In this document: positions 567 to 9,674 of the stretch, piece by piece
Numbering within the stretch: the first letter of the stretch is position 1
Layout of the letters: each line of letters opens with the position of its first letter
DNA from: Alphaproteobacteria bacterium
Lineage (GTDB): Bacteria; Pseudomonadota; Alphaproteobacteria; Caulobacterales; Hyphomonadaceae
Reading direction: 5' to 3'
Assembly (NCBI GenBank): GCA_009909065.1
Contig: JAAANZ010000027.1
Coordinates: 1-64,000, forward strand
Length of the DNA stretch: 64,000 bases
Position numbers and translations under genes: made by a program
The notes under the pieces: model-generated
Database searches by the model: none
What the model saw: the letters and a program-made list of their open reading frames with translations, nothing else
What the model was told of the DNA's origin: nothing

Positions 567-2375
567 ATGCATTCTCCGAAGTTCGAATTAATCATCAAAG
601 AGCTATCTCCGATATTCACGGAGTCTCGGCTTAAACATGTTTGGAAAAAAGTCAGATACGCGGTGCGGCGTTTCCCGCTGAGGGACGCCATCGATCACTT
701 TGATTTCGAGATCGAATTGGAAGCTCGAATTCGGCACTTGAGCCGGAACGTAAAAGAAGGACAGTACGCCCCGAAAGGCCAAAACCGTTATCGTGTGGAG
801 AAATCGAAGGGTCTTTGCCGTCAACTAGTGATGCCGACAGTGCAAGACTGTATCGTTCTACAAATTCTATCGGATTGTCTATACCACGAAATTACCAAAA
901 CCGCCCCAAGCGCTAAAGCTTATTTCAAGCCCGAAGATGGCAACTTCAATAAAAAATTTGAATTACTTGCCGCCGAACAATACGGATCACGAAAAGCCTG
1001 GCTTGATTTTCAAAATAAGCTATTTGGTTTTCCAATAAACTACAAATTTCTCGTGATAACCGATATAGCCAATTACTACGACTTTGTTAAATACTCCCAT
1101 CTGAGAAATGTTATATCGCCAAAAACAGACAAAGCGGAATGTATTCTAGATCTTCTAATATTTGTTTTGTCTGGATTGTCGTGGTCACCAGACTATATGC
1201 CGACGCAACTCACAGGACTCCCTCAAATTGACATAGATGCACCAAGGCTTCTAGCTCACGCCTTGTTATTCGAAATTGATAACCACATAGAGCACACTGC
1301 AAAGATGGATCACGTCAGATTCATGGATGATATTGATGTCGGTGCAAATTCAATATCTGAAGCAAAAAAGATACTCAGAGATATCGACCTGATTCTGCAG
1401 ACTCGACAGCTTCGATTGAATTCTGGGAAAACAAAAATACTTACTGCTAAAGATGCAGAAAAACATTTATGCATCAAAGAAAACTACATCCTAACGGTCT
1501 GGCAGCAACAAATGGATAAGGATATTGCGCACGGGAAGAATACTAAACGTCACGCTGAAAGAGTAGTAAAGATTGTTTCTCGCGGGCTTTCTGAAGGATT
1601 CTTTGATCGAGGGAACGGCGAAAAGATACTCAAGAGGCTGATAACCACAGCAAATAAGCTAGGGGCTGAACTGCGGCTTGATGATATTATTCGAATTATT
1701 AGGCTGCGCCCCGGCGTTAGAGCGAATGCGTTTTGGCACCTTTCCAAGAGAAGGTTAGGAATGCGAGAACTCCGCCCGTTAAGAGATTTGGTGCTGGACG
1801 AAGTTTTTGTTGACGACGACGCGTTTATGCAACTGACAAAACTGCTCACAGAGGCGAGTGTCGTCAAAAGTAAACCCGTCCAAAATACCATTCGCGACAT
1901 TTGCAAATACCTATTTGATAAATCAGGTTTTGGTGTGGTGCTTGCGCAACGAATTGCGGGACGATTCCTTACTAGAAACGAAGTCCTTCATTACACTGGC
2001 GCGAAAAGAACACTTTGGGAGCACAATTATGTAATGGGTCGTTATATCGCGGCCCACTACCCCACAATGATGAAGTCTCCGACCTACCTTGCGAAGTTTA
2101 AAGCGTCTTTAGAGGCATCCAAAAATGATGGCTGTGCCACAGTCCAAGAATTCTATGAAAATTTAGTATTTCAGAAACCAGACAAAAAGATCAAGTATTA
2201 CTGTAGGGCGCCTAATCCTACACTTCCATTAGGGGCAAATTTCGAGAAGGTCATGATGCTGGTTGCACTGGTTCAAAATAATACCGAACTGTCGAAAGCA
2301 GACAAAGACGCTTTAATGGCTAACCACACCAAGCTTGTTTCTGATCCGTATTACGGGCCATTGCTCAAGTATTAA
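567..2375 (+). CDS. Abi/Unknown-Group type reverse transcriptase (probable phage-defence protein)
   Basis: This is a 602-residue protein with an N-terminal reverse transcriptase and a long helical C-terminal part. Motif A is ITDIANYYD (catalytic Asp about 166), motif B is GLPQ (217-220), motif C is FMDD (252-255) in place of YADD, and motif D is LNSGKTKIL (284-292). Residues 300-602 look all-helical, rich in Leu/Lys/Arg, with no maturase, integrase or nuclease motif. That layout matches the solitary Abi/UG reverse transcriptases of which several are known antiviral (DRT) proteins; the exact class cannot be set by eye. ATG 567 is the only in-frame ATG after 279; GTG 474 is an alternative. Codon use is visibly AT-richer than all neighbours, a sign of transfer. 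It converges on uvrB and the two stop codons interlock in TTAA. Confidence 0.85.
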
Positions 2376-4573
2376 ACTCCCAACTCCGCTTCCCTCAACT
2401 TCTTCACCTCGTCGCGCAGCCGCGCGGCTTCCTCGAACTCCAGGTTCGCTGCGGCGTCGCGCATCTGGCGTTCGAGGTCGGCGATATGCGCGCCCATATT
2501 GTGCCCCGGTTCGCCCGCCAGTGGCAAGGCCGGGCTTTCTGCAACCCCGCGGCGGTCGCGGGTGCGGCGGGACTTGCCGCCCTTGAGCTGGCCCTCGCCA
2601 TAATTGCCGGCGCGCGGTTTCTCGCCGAGTTCGCCGAGAATGTCGGACACGGCGCGCTTGATCGTGGTCGGCGTGATGCCGTGCTCGGCATTCCAGGCGA
2701 GCTGTTTGGCGCGCCGGCGCTCGGTCTCGTCCATGGCGCGCTGCATCGAGCCGGTGATGCGGTCGCCATAGAGGATGACGCGCGCTTCCGAGTTGCGCGC
2801 CGCCCGGCCAATGGTCTGCACCAGCGAGGTCTCCGAGCGCAGGAAGCCCTCCTTGTCGGCGTCGAGTATGGCGACCAGCCCGCATTCGGGAATGTCCAGC
2901 CCCTCGCGCAGGAGGTTGATGCCGACCAGAACATCGAACTCGCCGAGGCGCAGGTCGCGGATGATCTCGATCCGCTCCACCGTGTCGATATCCGAATGCA
3001 TGTAGCGCACGCGCACGCCCTGTTCGTGCAGGTATTCGGTAAGGTCCTCGGCCATCTTCTTGGTCAGCGTGGTGACCAGCGTGCGGTGGCCCTTCGCGGC
3101 GGTCTCGCGGATCTCGGCGAGGACATCGTCGACCTGGTTGGCGCCCTCGGCCGCCACGGGGCGCACCTCCACCGGCGGGTCGATGAGGCCCGTGGGTCGG
3201 ATCACCTGTTCGGTGAAGACCCCGCCGGTGCGCTCCATCTCCCAGGGGCCGGGCGTGGCGGAGACATGCATTGTCTGCGGGCGCATCGCGTCCCATTCCT
3301 CGAAGCGCAGCGGCCGGTTGTCGGCGCATGACGGCAGGCGGAATCCGTATTCGGCGAGGGTGCGCTTGCGGTTGAAGTCGCCGCGGAACATCGCACCGAG
3401 CTGCGGAATGGTCTGGTGGCTCTCATCGACGAAGAGCAGGGCATTGTCCGGGATGTATTCGAACAGGGTCGGCGGCGGCTCGCCCGGCTTGCGGCCGGTG
3501 AGATAGCGCGAATAATTCTCGATCCCGTTGCAGGAGCCGGTGGCCGCGAGCATTTCGAGGTCATATTGCGTGCGCTGCTCGATGCGCTGGGCCTCCAGCA
3601 GTTTCCCGTGCTGTTCGAAATGCGCGATGGTGGATTTCAGCTCCGCCTTGATGGACTCGATGGCCTGGTTCAGCGTCGGGCGCGGGGTGACATAATGGCT
3701 GTTGGCGTAGAGCTTGATCGCGTCCAGCCGGTGCAGCGTGCGCCCGGTGAGCGGGTCGAACTCGGTGATCGCCTCCAGCTCGTCGCCGAAAAAGGAGAGT
3801 TTCCAGGCGCGGTCTTCATAATGGGCGGGGAAGATGTCGATGACATCGCCCTTCACGCGGAAACTGCCGCGCGAGAAGGAGACGTCATTGCGGGTGTATT
3901 GCAGGGCGACGAGCTGCTGCATCACCTCGCGCGGGTCGATCTGCTGGCCGGCCTCCAGCTTGGTCGTCATCGAGGTGTAGGTCTCGACCGAGCCGATGCC
4001 ATAGATGCACGAGACCGAGGCGACAATGATCGTGTCATCGCGCTCGAGAATGGCGCGCGTGGCCGAGTGGCGCATCCGGTCGATGGCCTCGTTGATGGAG
4101 GATTCCTTCTCGATATAGAGGTCCCGGTTGGGGACATAGGCTTCGGGCTGGTAATAATCGTAATAGGAGACGAAATATTCCACCGCATTGTCGGGGAAGA
4201 AGGATTTGAACTCGCCATAGAGCTGGGCGGCGAGCGTCTTGTTCGGCGCGAGGATGAGGGCCGGGCGCTGGGTGCGCTCGATCACCTGCGCCATGGTGAA
4301 GGTCTTGCCCGTGCCGGTCGCGCCGAGCAGCACCTGGTCGCGCTCGCCGGCCTGCGCGCCTTCGACGAGTTCGGGGATCGCGGTGCGCTGGTCGCCGGCG
4401 GGCTGATACTCGGCCTCCAGCCGGAAGCGGCGCCCGCCCTCGAACTTCTCCCAGTCCCGCTCGGGCCGGTGCGGCGCCCATTCCTCGGGCGCGCCCTTCA
4501 GCCCCCCCTCGTCCAGAACCGAATAATCGAAAATCGCCGGCGCCTCGGCGGCGCCCTGTTTGCTGCGTGCCAT
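2372..4573 (-). CDS. uvrB: UvrABC excinuclease subunit B
   Basis: This is a 733-residue UvrB, the helicase-like damage-verification subunit of nucleotide excision repair, which takes DNA from UvrA and recruits UvrC. Walker A is GATGTGKT (84-91). The beta-hairpin region with [13 protein letters not shown], the DESHQT Walker B box and helicase motif [11 protein letters not shown] are all present, and a C-terminal UVR motif ([20 protein letters not shown]) ends the protein. Start ATG 4573 (MARSKQG) gives a normal N-terminus; the frame is open to 4813 but that extension is not protein-like. GC content is that of the host core. The gene is bracketed by foreign-looking genes: the reverse transcriptase shares its stop region, and the three-gene cassette diverges from its start 93 bp away. 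Confidence 0.97.
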
Positions 4574-4666: not shown

Positions 4667-5257
4667 TTGCCGTTTGTTAGACCTGAGAGTGCTCTTTATC
4701 CGCTTGTCCACCGCTGGCTGCAGGCGGATTTCAAGGCGTCCGAAGCCATGAGGGCTGAGGCTAGGAACGCCGTCACTTTCACAGATAATATTGCCGAACA
4801 AGGCACGCGACATGGCGGACTATGGTCTCAACCGGACCTGGCTGCGGTGGTGTATGCGAAGGCGCGATATCTGCCACACTGGACCGCCGACCTGTATTCA
4901 TTTGAGGTCAAGACAGGTGATGGGATCGGGCAGGAGGCGGTCTACGAGGCCTTTGCCCATACACGATTTGTGAATTTCTCCTACCTGGTCTGGCAGGTTC
5001 CGATTGCGCAAAGAGACATCGACAATCGGGTTTTGGACTTGTGCCAGAAGTTCGGTTTGGGTGCTCTCATTACCCCCGAACCGGATGATCCAAGAAGCTA
5101 CCGGGTGGTGCATACTCCGCTACGAAGGGAAACCCCGCCATCCACGTTCGACCAATTCATCTCCGAGCGGTTCAGCGAGCAAACCAAGCGCGCGATCCAG
5201 GGCTGGTTGTCGGCGGCGGGCTGGGCGCAGGACGGTCGGCAAGACGGAAGATATTAA
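4667..5257 (+). CDS. PD-(D/E)XK nuclease-like protein, gene 1 of a three-gene cassette
   Basis: A 196-residue protein of no named family that I recognise. The stretch [12 protein letters not shown] followed by [12 protein letters not shown] and then [11 protein letters not shown] fits the order D...ExK...QxxxYxxA of PD-(D/E)XK (Mrr/RecB-like) nuclease folds, so a DNA-cleaving or nuclease-derived role is inferred. The start is TTG 4667, preceded by a good ribosome site (aaggggga at about 4652-4660). The stop overlaps the next start in TAATG, so translation is coupled to the ParA-like gene. Composition is less GC-rich than the core genes. The PD-(D/E)XK assignment rests on short motifs only; it might instead be a catalytically dead DNA-binding relative. 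Confidence 0.7.
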
Positions 5258-6183
5258 TGCGAATAGCAGTTGCGAACATGAAGGGCGGAGTTGGCAAGAG
5301 CACAACGACGATGATGCTTGCTGACACGCTTTCTCTCCACCATGAAAAGCGAGTCCTGATAGTCGATTGTGATCCACAGGCGAATTGTAGTCAGATGGTC
5401 TTAAGCTACGAGGGCCTGAAAGAGGCGAAGGCGTCTCATAAGACGTTGGCATCCTGGATCGAATCGCTGATCGGGCGTTCGATTTACGGAGAGAAGATGC
5501 AGCGCTATCAGGCGGGCCAGACGATCTGCTATGACGTATCCGAACTGACGAACTTCAAGCCAGGATGGTTCAATCAAAACCCATCTGAAGGGCGTTTGTC
5601 GATCTGGCCATCAATCCCCGATTCGCGTTTTGCGGAACTCATGTTCGACGCTGAGCACGTTCAGAACGGCGATCTTGAGCATCCGCGTCGGGTATTGGCC
5701 CAAGAAATCAGCCGCGGACTCAAGGAAGCTTTGACGGACGAAGAGATAGCGATCTTTGATTGTCCGCCTGGGTTCTCAACGCTTGCGCAGGCGGCTCTCC
5801 TGAATGCCGATTTCATCCTGTCACCTCTGAACGTGGACTTCGTTTCACTGTGGAGTCTGAAGACTTTTTGGAATCAGGGACTGTCCGATACCTTGAAGAT
5901 CAGTGATCGGGTTCCCCGCTACGCGATGTTCACGATGGTCAGGAACTCCGGCGGGCGCGAAGAACGAATGCGCCTGAGGCAAGAGCTGTCAGCTTTCGCC
6001 AATGGACAACGGATCCGCGCCGAGGTCTCATTCTCGGTTCAGGGGCTCCGAATGGCCACACGAATCGCTCCCGATTCACAGCGGAGCTTCAACGAAAAAT
6101 ACGGTTCGCTGCGTGGAACCGTCAGAGCGCTTGGTGACGAAGTCGCTGAGCTGATTTCCTCACAAAAGGAGAGTGAAAATTGA
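5257..6183 (+). CDS. ParA/MinD-type (SIMIBI) ATPase, gene 2 of the cassette
   Basis: A 308-residue ATPase of the ParA family. The deviant Walker A box MKGGVGKST is at residues 8-16, the switch-like VDCDPQAN at about 36-43 and a Walker B box IAIFDCPPG in the middle. Family members dimerise on ATP and often bind DNA non-specifically to position plasmids, chromosomes or membrane clusters. There is no ParB partner and no parS-like repeat next to it, so a segregation role is unlikely; instead it sits between a nuclease-like gene and a small protein with 1-bp and 4-bp overlaps, which implies a complex. A 40-residue insertion (about 90-130) departs from standard ParA. Role inferred: nucleotide-controlled regulator or loader of the nuclease-like partner. 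Confidence 0.85.
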   Translation: MRIAVANMKGGVGKSTTTMMLADTLSLHHEKRVLIVDCDPQANCSQMVLSYEGLKEAKASHKTLASWIESLIGRSIYGEKMQRYQAGQTICYDVSELTNFKPGWFNQNPSEGRLSIWPSIPDSRFAELMFDAEHVQNGDLEHPRRVLAQEISRGLKEALTDEEIAIFDCPPGFSTLAQAALLNADFILSPLNVDFVSLWSLKTFWNQGLSDTLKISDRVPRYAMFTMVRNSGGREERMRLRQELSAFANGQRIRAEVSFSVQGLRMATRIAPDSQRSFNEKYGSLRGTVRALGDEVAELISSQKESEN

Positions 6184-6539
6184 CGACTCGGGAAGTTGCG
6201 CCTGACGCAGCGCTGAATGCATTTCTTGAAGCCGTGAGAGATGCGGCCGCGGAAGATCCCGCCTTTAAGGCGCGCCTCATTGACGCCTTGGGCTTTACTG
6301 TTCTGTATGAAGGCGAAGAACAATTCGAAGGCGCCAACCCTGTTTCTCAGGCGGAAAGATGGTCGCCCGATGCATTCAAACGAATATGGAACGCAGCTCG
6401 TGTCCCTCAAATAAGAGAAGCGCTCAAGAATCAAGAGCTCGCTACGACCTCTGACATGAGGGGGCTAAGGAAGGCTGAACTCATCGACTTGATGTACAGG
6501 CGTGCTGAACAGAAGGCACGAAATGACGGACGGATTTAG
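6180..6539 (+). CDS. Small helical protein, gene 3 of the cassette
   Basis: A 119-residue, mostly helical protein that I do not recognise. It starts at TTG 6180, overlapping the ParA-like stop by 4 bp (TTGA), so it depends on upstream translation. The N-terminal half is acidic and helical (LNAFLEAVRDAAAEDPAF), the middle has WSPDAFKRIWNAARVPQI, and the end (RGLRKAELIDLMYRRAEQK) resembles a SAP-like helix-turn-helix that could bind DNA. Its fixed place in the operon suggests an adaptor, inhibitor or specificity subunit. The stop codon is 12 bp from a duplicated piece of the neighbouring SYLF gene, which marks the edge of the transferred segment. Confidence 0.7.
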   Translation: MTTREVAPDAALNAFLEAVRDAAAEDPAFKARLIDALGFTVLYEGEEQFEGANPVSQAERWSPDAFKRIWNAARVPQIREALKNQELATTSDMRGLRKAELIDLMYRRAEQKARNDGRI

Positions 6540-6551
6540 AAGGGCCGGTCC

Positions 6552-6620
6552 CCCCTAACGCACCTTCGTGATCTTCGTGCCCTCGATGCTCACGCCCGCC
6601 ATCAGGCCGCGCTGGTTGAA
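6552..6620 (-). repeat. Left copy of a 69-bp direct repeat (orphan 3' end of the SYLF gene)
   Basis: These 69 bp match 6992-7060 with three substitutions and no gaps, exactly 440 bp apart and in the same orientation. The right copy encodes the last 21 codons and stop of the SYLF lipoprotein; this left copy is a detached duplicate that replaces the body of a vapC toxin gene. It lies directly after the three-gene cassette, so it is either a recombination scar brought in with the cassette or one of a pair of attachment-like sites. Confidence 0.9.
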
Positions 6621-6663
6621 TACGCATCAGGCCGATCCAGGCGCTGGTATCGAACAGGATCAT
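6619..6663 (-). pseudogene. vapC (PIN-domain toxin) remnant
   Basis: After the antitoxin gene the next frame starts at ATG 6663 with an ATGA overlap and reads MILFDTSAWIGLMR, the hallmark first strand of PIN-domain VapC ribonucleases, including the first catalytic Asp. After about 15 codons it runs into the duplicated SYLF 3' end in a wrong frame. The other acidic residues of the active site are gone, so the toxin is dead. Confidence 0.85.
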
Positions 6664-6857
6664 TCGGGCGGGAAGCGACGGCGGGGCGGAGCTTCCAGAT
6701 CAGGTGCCGTTCCGGCCAGCAAGGCGAGCCGCTTCTGGGCATCTCGGGCGATCAGCAGTTTCAGCCCGGCTTCGACCAGTTCAGAGATGGATTTGCCCTC
6801 ATCCACTTCCTTCGCCCGGGCGAGCAATTCATCATCAATGGTCACGGTGGTGCGCAT
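6660..6857 (-). CDS. VapB-type antitoxin (orphan)
   Basis: A 65-residue antitoxin: MRTTVTIDDELLARAKE is the ribbon-helix-helix start typical of the VapB family (DUF2191), and the tail PDLEAPPRRRFPPE is the unstructured toxin-neutralising part. A strong ribosome site (aaggag) lies 8-10 bases before ATG 6857. Normally it represses its own promoter together with VapC. Here the toxin is cut to a stub, so the antitoxin is left without a partner; it may persist as a neutral relic or as an anti-toxin against incoming vapC copies. Confidence 0.85.
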   Translation of the reverse strand: MRTTVTIDDELLARAKEVDEGKSISELVEAGLKLLIARDAQKRLALLAGTAPDLEAPPRRRFPPE

Positions 6858-6991
6858 GGGCTGGGCTCCTTTGCATCAGATATAGCATCATTTGGTGCGG
6901 AATTCCATGCGGGGAGGGGCTTGGCATGTGGCGTGAGCGGTATTCACATCTTGCCCTGGGGCTCAAGCGCAAAGCGGGTCGGCCTGTGACA

Positions 6992-7060
6992 CCCCTAACG
7001 CACCCGCGTGATCTTCGTGCCCTCGATGCTCACGCCGGCCATCAGGCCGCGCTGGTTGAA
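6992..7060 (-). repeat. Right copy of the 69-bp direct repeat (native SYLF 3' end)
   Basis: This is the functional copy: it contains the last codons and TAG stop of the SYLF lipoprotein gene. It differs from 6552-6620 at three positions, which suggests the other copy came from a related but different strain. Confidence 0.9.
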
Positions 7061-7549
7061 GATGAAGGCGTAGGCGTCTTCGCGCAGGGTGGAGGTGGAG
7101 AGGTTTTCCGCCTTGCCGGCATCGACCACTACGACGGTCGGGCCGACGCCGATTTCCCAGCCGCCCGAGCGGCTGAGATAGTCCGCCGCGCCGGCATCCA
7201 TCAGGAAGAGCGCATAGCCATGGCTCTGCGCGCCCGCCTGCAGGCCCCAGCTGCCGCTGAGCGAGGTGTAATAGTCCTGCACCGCGCCGCCGCGCAGGTG
7301 TGCGCCCTCGCCATAAGCGCCGCCGACGACAAGCCCGCCCTTCACGATGGAAGGGAAGACGACGACCGAATGGGCTTGTGCGGCGATCGCGCGCGCGGCG
7401 CGGTTGTTCGCAGTCAGGCGCGCAAGGGCGCGGCGGGAATCGGCGGCCACTTCGCTCTCGTCAAATCCGCCGGGCGTGCTGGCGCAGCCGGCGGCGAGGA
7501 CGAGCGCAAGAAGCAGCGCGGCGAGCAGGGGCAGGCGGGCGAGTATCAT
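6995..7549 (-). CDS. SYLF/Ysc84-domain lipoprotein
   Basis: A 184-residue lipoprotein. The signal peptide ends in the lipobox LAAGC, and the rest is a SYLF (Ysc84) domain, recognised by SVVVFPSIVKGGLVVGG, GAVQDYYTSLSGSWGLQAG and the end motif GLMAGVSIEGTKI. SYLF domains bind phospholipids; bacterial members are periplasmic lipoproteins of unclear function. ATG 7549 is chosen because aaagg sits 7 bases upstream; ATG 7564 is also possible and adds five residues. The 3' end of this gene is duplicated at 6552-6620. Confidence 0.88.
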   Translation of the reverse strand: MILARLPLLAALLLALVLAAGCASTPGGFDESEVAADSRRALARLTANNRAARAIAAQAHSVVVFPSIVKGGLVVGGAYGEGAHLRGGAVQDYYTSLSGSWGLQAGAQSHGYALFLMDAGAADYLSRSGGWEIGVGPTVVVVDAGKAENLSTSTLREDAYAFIFNQRGLMAGVSIEGTKITRVR

Positions 7550-7838
7550 GGCGGGGCCTTTCATTGCGCCCGGCAGTTTACGCCGCGGCGCGCGCCGTGG
7601 CCATTGCCAATTCGTGAATTCGCCGTCAGCCGGATCCGGCGTGGCTCAAGCCGCAGATGCGCGCAAAGCCCATCGCGAGAGCCGGCGCCGCCGCCGTCCG
7701 CAAAACCCTTCCCCCCTTCCGCGGCCCGCGCAGCACATTCTGCCTTGAGCCGCGTCAAACAGCATGGTCAAAGTGTCACAAATCGCGCGCCGGGGGCGTG
7801 TCGGGTCGTCAACACTGGATATTCGGGCAGGGCCATTC

Positions 7839-9674
7839 ATGCAGATCCTTCTCTTCGCCGCGCTGGCGCTCGTGCCGCTGATCTTCGCCTTCTCCATGTG
7901 GGAGATGCGCAAGCATCCGCGCGGGCTGTACATCCTCTTCTTCGCGGAGATGTGGGAGCGTTTTTCCTATTACGGGATGCGCGCGCTGCTGATCTTCTAT
8001 CTCACCTGGCATTTCCTGTTCGACAGCGATTTCTCGCTGACCCTGTATGGCGCCTATGTGGCGCTGGTGTATCTCGGGCCGCTGCTCGGCGGCTGGCTGG
8101 CGGACAAATATATCGGCTTTCGCAAGGCGGTGACCTTCGGCGCGGTTCTGCTGGTGGCCGGCCATGGCCTGATGGGCTTTCACGGCCCGCCGGCAAGCGA
8201 GCGACTGGTCGTCGACGGCACCGAATATGCCCTGGAGCGGCCGACCTATAGCGAGACCCGCGATCAGCGAGAGATCATCGTCGGGGGTGAGGCCTATAGC
8301 GTCACGGCATTCGTCCAGCCTGAAGACGGCTCGCCAATTCGCGAAGTGAGCTATACCGGACCGGGTGGAGAGGCGGCTTCGCTGACCGGCACGGTAGAGC
8401 GCGTGCGCAACCCGCTCTACGAGACCATCCTGTTCGCGGCGCTGGCGCTGATCGTGGCGGGCGTCGGCTTCCTCAAGCCGAACATCTCGACCTGTGTCGG
8501 CGCGCTGTATGAGCAGGGGGACCGGCGCCGGGATTCCGGGTTCACGCTCTATTATATGGGCATCAATCTCGGCTCCTTCCTGTCGGGCATTGCCTGTGGC
8601 TGGGCGGCGGCGAATTATGGCTGGTCGCTGGGCTTCGGGCTGGCGGCCATCGGCATGCTGGCCGGGCTCATCGTCTTCGTGATCGGGCAGGGCTGGCTGG
8701 AGGGCCGGGCCGAGCCGCCCGAGGGCGTGGACCTGAAGACACCGGTCTTTGCCGGGCTGAACCGGGAATGGCTGGTCTATCTCTCAGGGCTGGGATTTGC
8801 CGCCGTGGCCTTCGTTCTGCTGCAATTCGCCAGCTTCACCTCGGCGGCGATGTATCCGGTCTTCTTCCTGGTGACCGCCGCGATCGTGGTCTACATGCTG
8901 GCGCGGCTCGATGCCGATACGCGCAATTCGATGATCGGGCTCCTGATCCTGTCGATCTCCTCGGTCCTGTTCTGGACGCTGTTCGACCAGGGGCCGACCT
9001 CGCTGAACCTGTTTGCCGGCGCGCATGTGGTCAACGAGATTGGCGGCCAGGAATTCCCGGCGACATGGCTGCAATCGGCCAATCCGTATTTCATCATCGT
9101 GTTCGCCCCGCTGGTCGCGGCGCTGTGGACCTGGTTGGGCGATCGCGGCTGGGAACCCAACGCCTTCATCAAGTTCGGCTTCGGCATGGTCCAGATCGGG
9201 GCGGGTTTCTATGTGCTCAATCTCGGCATCCAGACCGCGACGCCCGACGCGGCCGGCGCCCTGCGCATCTCGGTCCTGTTCATCATCCTGATGTATCTGT
9301 TGCACACAACGGGGGAGGTGTTCCTCTCGCCGGTGGGCCTGTCGGCGGTGACAAAGATGTCGGCCCCGCAGATTGTCGGCTTCATGATGGGCTACTGGTT
9401 CCTCGCCTCGTCCTTCGCCAATGTCATTGCCGCCGAAGTCGCCAAGCGCACCCAGGTGCCCGAGGGCGCGCCGACGGCCGAGAGTCTTGCGGCTTATAAT
9501 GCGGTCTATCTGCAACTCGGCACCGCGGCGGTGGGCCTCGGCGCGGCGCTGATCCTGCTGAGCCCCTGGCTGCGCAAGCTGTCGCGCCAGTCCGACGACC
9601 ACACGCGCGCCATGGAGGTGGACGCGTCCGGCGTTGCGCTCGACAGGTCCGGGGCGAAATCGCCGGGCGAGTAG
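7839..9674 (+). CDS. Proton-dependent oligopeptide transporter (POT/PTR family)
   Basis: A 611-residue inner-membrane carrier of the POT family, which imports di- and tripeptides with protons. The family signature is visible as RGLYILFFAEMWERFSYYG near the N-terminus (ExxER type) and NPLYETILF...GFLKPNISTCVG in the middle, followed by FTLYYMGINLGSF. A hydrophilic insertion of about 60 residues (around 115-180) separates the early helices from the middle ones, a feature of longer POT relatives. ATG 7839 starts the first transmembrane helix; the frame is open to 7764 but that part is basic and unlikely. Transcribed away from the SYLF gene across a shared 290-bp region. Confidence 0.9.
   Translation: MQILLFAALALVPLIFAFSMWEMRKHPRGLYILFFAEMWERFSYYGMRALLIFYLTWHFLFDSDFSLTLYGAYVALVYLGPLLGGWLADKYIGFRKAVTFGAVLLVAGHGLMGFHGPPASERLVVDGTEYALERPTYSETRDQREIIVGGEAYSVTAFVQPEDGSPIREVSYTGPGGEAASLTGTVERVRNPLYETILFAALALIVAGVGFLKPNISTCVGALYEQGDRRRDSGFTLYYMGINLGSFLSGIACGWAAANYGWSLGFGLAAIGMLAGLIVFVIGQGWLEGRAEPPEGVDLKTPVFAGLNREWLVYLSGLGFAAVAFVLLQFASFTSAAMYPVFFLVTAAIVVYMLARLDADTRNSMIGLLILSISSVLFWTLFDQGPTSLNLFAGAHVVNEIGGQEFPATWLQSANPYFIIVFAPLVAALWTWLGDRGWEPNAFIKFGFGMVQIGAGFYVLNLGIQTATPDAAGALRISVLFIILMYLLHTTGEVFLSPVGLSAVTKMSAPQIVGFMMGYWFLASSFANVIAAEVAKRTQVPEGAPTAESLAAYNAVYLQLGTAAVGLGAALILLSPWLRKLSRQSDDHTRAMEVDASGVALDRSGAKSPGE

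What the first reader, a model, noticed from the sequence alone, without database searches (positions are those of the whole stretch)
6552..7060. 69-bp direct repeat that decapitated a vapC toxin gene
6552-6620 and 6992-7060 match at 66 of 69 positions, same orientation, 440 bp apart. The right copy is the true 3' end of the SYLF gene; the left copy replaces all but 15 codons of vapC, 12 bp after the cassette. Likely explanation: the cassette came from a strain in which it sat directly next to its own SYLF gene, and this scar is the junction. Alternative: attL/attR-like sites of a small element.
Basis: partly seen in the sequence, partly recalled or inferred. Interest (0 to 1): 0.58.

Follow-up and report, generated by a model that had tools for sequence, protein, structure and literature searches.

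The report
Recombination scar that truncated vapC
A 69-base copy of the tail end of one bacterial gene sits inside a broken toxin gene nearby, most likely the seam left when DNA from two related strains was joined; this is an ordinary kind of genome scar, not a new genetic element.

Summary
In detail: 6552-6620 and 6992-7060 match at 66 of 69 positions (chance expectation about 2e-24). The right copy is the last 21 codons plus stop of a SYLF/Ysc84 gene. The left copy lies 12 bp after a three-gene cassette and cuts vapC after 14 codons plus 1 nt; vapB is intact. Homology ends 3 nt past the SYLF stop on one side and mid-gene on the other. The three differences are one synonymous change and one Arg/Lys exchange (CGG/AAG) at a site where orthologues mostly carry Lys or Arg. 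I read the left copy as the 3' end of a diverged SYLF allele that had the cassette as neighbour, joined illegitimately to DNA in which vapBC lay beside SYLF. An att-site reading is disfavoured: the spacer is 371 bp and no integrase or resolvase hit lies on this contig. A chimeric contig is not excluded (draft assembly, 133 contigs, 80% complete). Low interest.

The parts
4667..6539 (+). three-gene cassette: 196-aa PD-(D/E)xK-like protein (4667-5257), ParA-like ATPase 308 aa (5257-6183), 119-aa protein (6180-6539)
   Evidence: invariant E..YP..PD..ExK in a 4-sequence alignment; GC 0.55 against 0.66-0.70 in uvrB and SYLF
6540..6551 (.). 12-bp spacer between cassette stop and left repeat copy
6552..6620 (-). 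left repeat copy: orphan 3' end of a SYLF allele (21 codons, stop, 3 nt)
   Evidence: also hit by the SYLF protein search
6620..6621 (.). illegitimate junction SYLF allele | vapC
6621..6663 (-). vapC remnant, first 14 codons + 1 nt, overlapping the vapB stop (ATGA)
6660..6857 (-). vapB antitoxin, intact, 65 aa
   Evidence: Pfam VapB_antitoxin E=1.2e-8
6992..7060 (-). right repeat copy: in-place 3' end of the SYLF gene
6995..7564 (-). complete SYLF/Ysc84 gene, 189 aa
   Evidence: relatives

Best explanation
The left copy is the native 3' end of a SYLF allele that once lay directly beside the cassette; the right copy belongs to a SYLF allele that had vapBC beside it. One recombination event joined the two neighbourhoods: homology (SYLF or sequence beyond it, or uvrB on the other side) anchored one end of the incoming DNA, and the other end was joined without evident homology inside vapC. 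This left a 69-bp orphan SYLF tail, a vapC stub and an orphan vapB. Shown here: the repeat, its edges, the allele-like differences and the truncated vapC. Inferred: two parental strains, and the mechanism (homology-facilitated illegitimate recombination most likely; a 440-bp circle entering by single crossover gives the same product). Not determined: which strain was the recipient.
For: The outer edge lies 3 nt past the SYLF stop, where two alleles with different neighbours would stop matching, while the inner edge is mid-gene. The differences are one synonymous and one R/K change through two adjacent bases; three random changes would be this mild in 5.0% of 200,000 simulations. Lys is the commonest residue at that position (19 of 50 distinct orthologue tails) and Arg the second (14, the window's own included). 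The segments left of each copy do not match each other, so this is not a simple tandem duplication. Published precedent: PMC3240628 (passages and one section read) reports insertion coupled to deletion, junctions without homology in 3 of 4 clones, and partial duplications in 56 of 60 clones. PMC5361080 (passages read) describes incoming modules that displace an effector but keep the old immunity gene, as vapB is kept here. A ComEC-type competence gene is present in the genome.
Against: Neither parental arrangement was found: cassette DNA only in G000 of 105 family genomes, no vapB beside SYLF in the other loci compared, SYLF absent from both same-genus genomes. Three differences are few, so the allele argument is modest. 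The contig comes from a 133-contig draft, 80% complete, and read support could not be checked. Ku was not found, though part of the genome is missing, and as far as I recall HFIR does not need it.
Confidence: 0.66

Rival explanations
1. Assembly chimera: a contig end from a cassette-SYLF strain was joined to a contig end from a vapBC-SYLF strain (or locus) in a mixed sample, so the junction at 6620/6621 does not exist in any cell.
For: The genome is a draft of 133 contigs, 80% complete. The edges would look the same. uvrB and POT are far apart or on different contigs in relatives.
Against: No ambiguous bases are visible at the join, and no shared sequence is seen there that an overlap assembler would need. 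Reported contamination is 0.02%.
Confidence: 0.15
2. Templated filler: a break in vapC, for example when the cassette arrived, was patched by copying 69 bp of the nearby SYLF 3' end; the copy then drifted by three bases.
For: Same-orientation copy only 440 bp away, closest to the resident SYLF of anything found (96%; next best in the searched collections 83% over 93 bp on a plasmid, and 77% in the family).
Against: The patch would have to end 3 nt past the stop by coincidence, and drift in a non-functional piece would not favour a synonymous plus an Arg/Lys change (5.0% in simulation).
Confidence: 0.13
3. attL/attR-like sites of a small integrated element (6621-6991) carrying vapB, made by an integrase acting on the SYLF 3' end.
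For: Direct repeats at a gene 3' end are typical of integrase targets (general knowledge, no call).
Against: The spacer is 371 bp with only vapB and a vapC stub. The genome's four Phage_integrase matches are on other contigs (C10, C103, C47, C11) and there is no resolvase match. No tRNA in the window. The repeats differ at 3 of 69 positions.
Confidence: 0.03
4. Reverse-transcriptase-made copy (diversity-generating-like template/variable repeat) driven by the UG13-type RT at 570-2375.
For: An RT gene lies 4.2 kb away; two of three differences are at adenines of the left copy's coding strand.
Against: Only 2 of 15 adenines differ and the third difference is G/C. The RT matches the UG13 defence group best (E=1.1e-181). 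uvrB lies between.
Confidence: 0.01

Closest known systems
Homology-facilitated illegitimate recombination (HFIR; PMC3240628, passages and section 12 read)
   Same: insertion coupled to loss of resident DNA, one end homologous, other end joined with little or no homology
   Different: the parents are not known here; the 69-bp repeat is a by-product not required by HFIR
Duplication by partial degradation, re-circularisation and single crossover (PMC3240628, section 12)
   Same: leaves a partial copy of the homologous gene end, foreign DNA, then the full copy; 109-950 bp duplications reported
   Different: would require a circle of only 440 bp here, and the shared stretch is 69 bp
Effector displacement leaving orphan immunity genes in Vibrio cholerae T6SS clusters (PMC5361080, passages read)
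   Same: toxic partner lost, protective partner kept beside an incoming module
   Different: VapBC, not T6SS; a single event, no array
Orphan type II antitoxin (VapB) with truncated toxin
   Same: intact vapB, vapC stub of 14 codons
   Different: truncation by junction with another gene's 3' end

Membership tests
HFIR product | one end of the imported DNA homologous to the recipient | tested here: inconclusive
   SYLF (and uvrB) could anchor it, but no recipient or donor genome was found
HFIR product | other end joined with 0-10 bp homology | tested here: inconclusive
   no match run between vapC stub and the SYLF sequence beyond the repeat, but the lost vapC sequence is unknown, so microhomology cannot be scored
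HFIR product | resident DNA deleted at the junction | tested here: met
   vapC lacks about 107-135 codons compared with intact homologues, and no PIN gene cut at its start is seen among 7 PIN matches in the genome held; met only if vapBC was the resident side
Integrase att sites | integrase or resolvase gene within or beside the repeats | tested here: not met
   none on contig C92
Integrase att sites | near-identical short core | tested here: inconclusive
   longest exact run 30 bp within 66/69 (read)
Tandem duplication | unit next to left copy matches unit next to right copy | tested here: not met
   6181-6551 against 6621-6991: local score only 8 at +1 a match
VapBC toxin-antitoxin module | intact VapB | tested here: met
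   PF09957 above cut-off
VapBC toxin-antitoxin module | intact PIN-domain VapC | tested here: not met
   43 nt only
Diversity-generating retroelement | differences mostly at template adenines, many of them | tested here: not met
   2 of 15 adenines differ, plus one G/C

The most novel reading that the evidence does not exclude
The SYLF 3' end is used repeatedly, without any integrase, as a homologous anchor at which strains of this lineage swap accessory modules (the nuclease-ParA cassette against vapBC), leaving SYLF-tail scars and orphan antitoxins as a record of past module exchange.
Probability: 0.08. Interest if true: 0.45.

Novelty: new member of a known kind. Interest (0 to 1): 0.2.

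Why it matters
It is a clean fossil of module exchange: a single junction shows how a toxin can be lost while its antitoxin stays, and how a putative nuclease-ParA cassette can enter a chromosome without its own integrase. One instance in one draft genome, it changes no general view.

Tried and rejected
Looked for a second SYLF or another copy of the junction region in the own genome: only the two known copies (weaker matches are at E above 0.1). Looked for the displaced part of vapC: seven PIN matches elsewhere, none cut at the start. Looked for the cassette's first gene in phages (none), plasmids (one Ensifer plasmid, 28%), viral contigs (none) and 385 class genomes (3 with a match, its own included); the 119-aa gene in viral contigs (none); a 45-base SYLF-tail pattern in viral contigs (none). 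Terminator, Rfam and tRNA scans gave nothing at the repeat. A 196-aa single-sequence model had mean pLDDT 45 and was discarded. A profile search of solved structures gave only one chance-level hit (E 0.52), not followed.

SYLF 3' neighbours in 82 loci (loci with under 600 bp downstream were dropped, and several loci come from the same genome, six of them from the window's own) vary. Of the eight neighbour proteins I printed, most look like ordinary chromosomal genes by eye (AMP nucleosidase-like, MscS-like, acetyltransferase-like; names recalled, no family search run), so I did not call the site a defence hotspot. In one search, tails whose alignment stopped before residue 187 and repeated tails were dropped before the count of 50.

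A paper search for UG13 with reverse transcriptase gave only unrelated papers. A search on orphan antitoxin/VapB/truncated toxin was seen as a listing only, as was one on single-crossover duplications. An earlier count said the outer edge lies 4 bp past the stop; 3 nt is right.

Full report
What is there. The window starts at base 1 of a 91.8-kb contig of a draft genome (133 contigs, 80% complete). One same-family genome (G086) has a contig of the same length as a Hyphomonas chukchiensis record that carries the same gene, so I take the family to be Hyphomonadaceae; that label is my inference. Reading left to right: a reverse transcriptase of the UG13 defence group (model match from about 567, ending 2375), uvrB (2372-4573, minus), a cassette of three genes (4667-6539, plus), 12 bp, the left repeat copy (6552-6620), a vapC stub (6621-6663, minus), vapB (6660-6857, minus), 137 bp, then the SYLF gene (6995-7564, minus) whose 3' end is the right copy, and a POT transporter (uvrB and POT named from their sequence, without a family search).

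The repeat. 66 of 69 positions match, far beyond chance (1.9e-24 expected). Read on the minus strand it is codons 169-189 of SYLF, the stop, and 3 further bases. The left copy reads FNQRGLMAGVSIEGTKITKVR-stop and the right copy FNQRGLMAGVSIEGTKITRVR-stop. The stretch beyond the stop shows no detectable homology between copies (1252 of 2000 shuffles score as well), and neither does the stretch beyond the inner edge.

Why an allele junction. Two strains that differ in what follows SYLF would match up to the end of the coding region and then diverge, and the outer edge does that. The other edge is in the middle of a gene, as a random break would be. The three differences leave the peptide all but unchanged: one silent, and one Arg/Lys exchange made by two adjacent base changes. 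In 200,000 simulated triples of random changes, 5.0% were as mild. Across 50 distinct orthologue tails (including the window's own), Lys occurs 19 times and Arg 14 times at this residue. This is modest but independent support for the left copy having been part of a working gene.

How it could have formed. In HFIR, one end of incoming DNA recombines by homology and the other joins illegitimately, with loss of resident DNA. PMC3240628 (passages, section 12) states that 3-10 bp of microhomology is usual in naturally competent species, and in its own E. coli clones 3 of 4 junctions had none. The same paper found that 56 of 60 recombinants gave a product diagnostic of partial duplication (109-950 bp in the 14 sequenced), explained by a single crossover with a circle that had lost part of the homologous end. 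Here that would need a 440-bp circle holding vapC stub, vapB and the SYLF tail. Both routes give cassette - SYLF tail - vapC stub - vapB - full SYLF. Sequence alone cannot choose between them, nor say whether the cassette or vapBC arrived last. The genome has a ComEC-type protein, which allows but does not prove DNA uptake; Ku was not detected.

vapBC. VapB is complete. Intact VapC homologues next to related vapB genes run 121-149 aa with N-termini such as MILVDTSVWIDHL (9 of the 16 loci examined; in the others, the window's own among them, no such gene followed within the frames tried); the stub MILFDTSAWIGLMR matches this start. Seven PIN matches elsewhere in the genome all begin within the first three positions of the model, so no displaced remainder was seen in the 80% held. 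VapB is therefore an orphan antitoxin, in the manner described for displaced effectors and retained immunity genes in Vibrio (PMC5361080, passages).

Search for the parents. By DNA, the cassette region is found in full only in G000 among 105 family genomes; 46 other genomes match, the strong matches hitting only the SYLF part (up to 77%) and the rest being weak and short. Both same-genus genomes lack SYLF and have other genes before uvrB. In the relatives compared, SYLF and uvrB are not neighbours.

Rivals. An assembly chimera would look the same and cannot be excluded without reads. A templated filler needs a coincidence at the stop codon and an unusually mild drift. Att sites lack an integrase: four Phage_integrase matches lie on other contigs and there is no resolvase match. 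A tandem duplication fails because the flanking units do not match. A retroelement-type copy fails on the base pattern (2 of 15 adenines plus one G/C difference).

Verdict. It is a scar of a known kind, of low general interest.

Noticed in passing
window 570-2375: Reverse transcriptase of the UG13a group (PADLOC E=1.1e-181), GC 0.45, whose stop overlaps the 3' end of uvrB; so foreign-looking modules flank uvrB on both sides.
   Followed up: partly
window 4667-6539: Cassette of a PD-(D/E)xK-like protein (invariant E, PD and ExK residues in 4 sequences), a ParA-like ATPase and a 119-aa protein without family hits; no relatives of the first gene in phages or viral contigs, two distant ones in 385 class genomes and one on an Ensifer plasmid.
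   Followed up: partly
window 7839-9674: The POT transporter is 75% identical to that of one other-genus genome (G014) but only about 44% to those of the two same-genus genomes, while the neighbouring tldD is 87% to the latter: POT may have been exchanged too.
   Followed up: no
window 7008-7100: The SYLF end is 83% identical over 93 bp to plasmid CP131057.1 (24203-24295) of Hyphomicrobiales bacterium UR115, closer than the family's chromosomal copies (up to 77%, over longer stretches).
   Followed up: no
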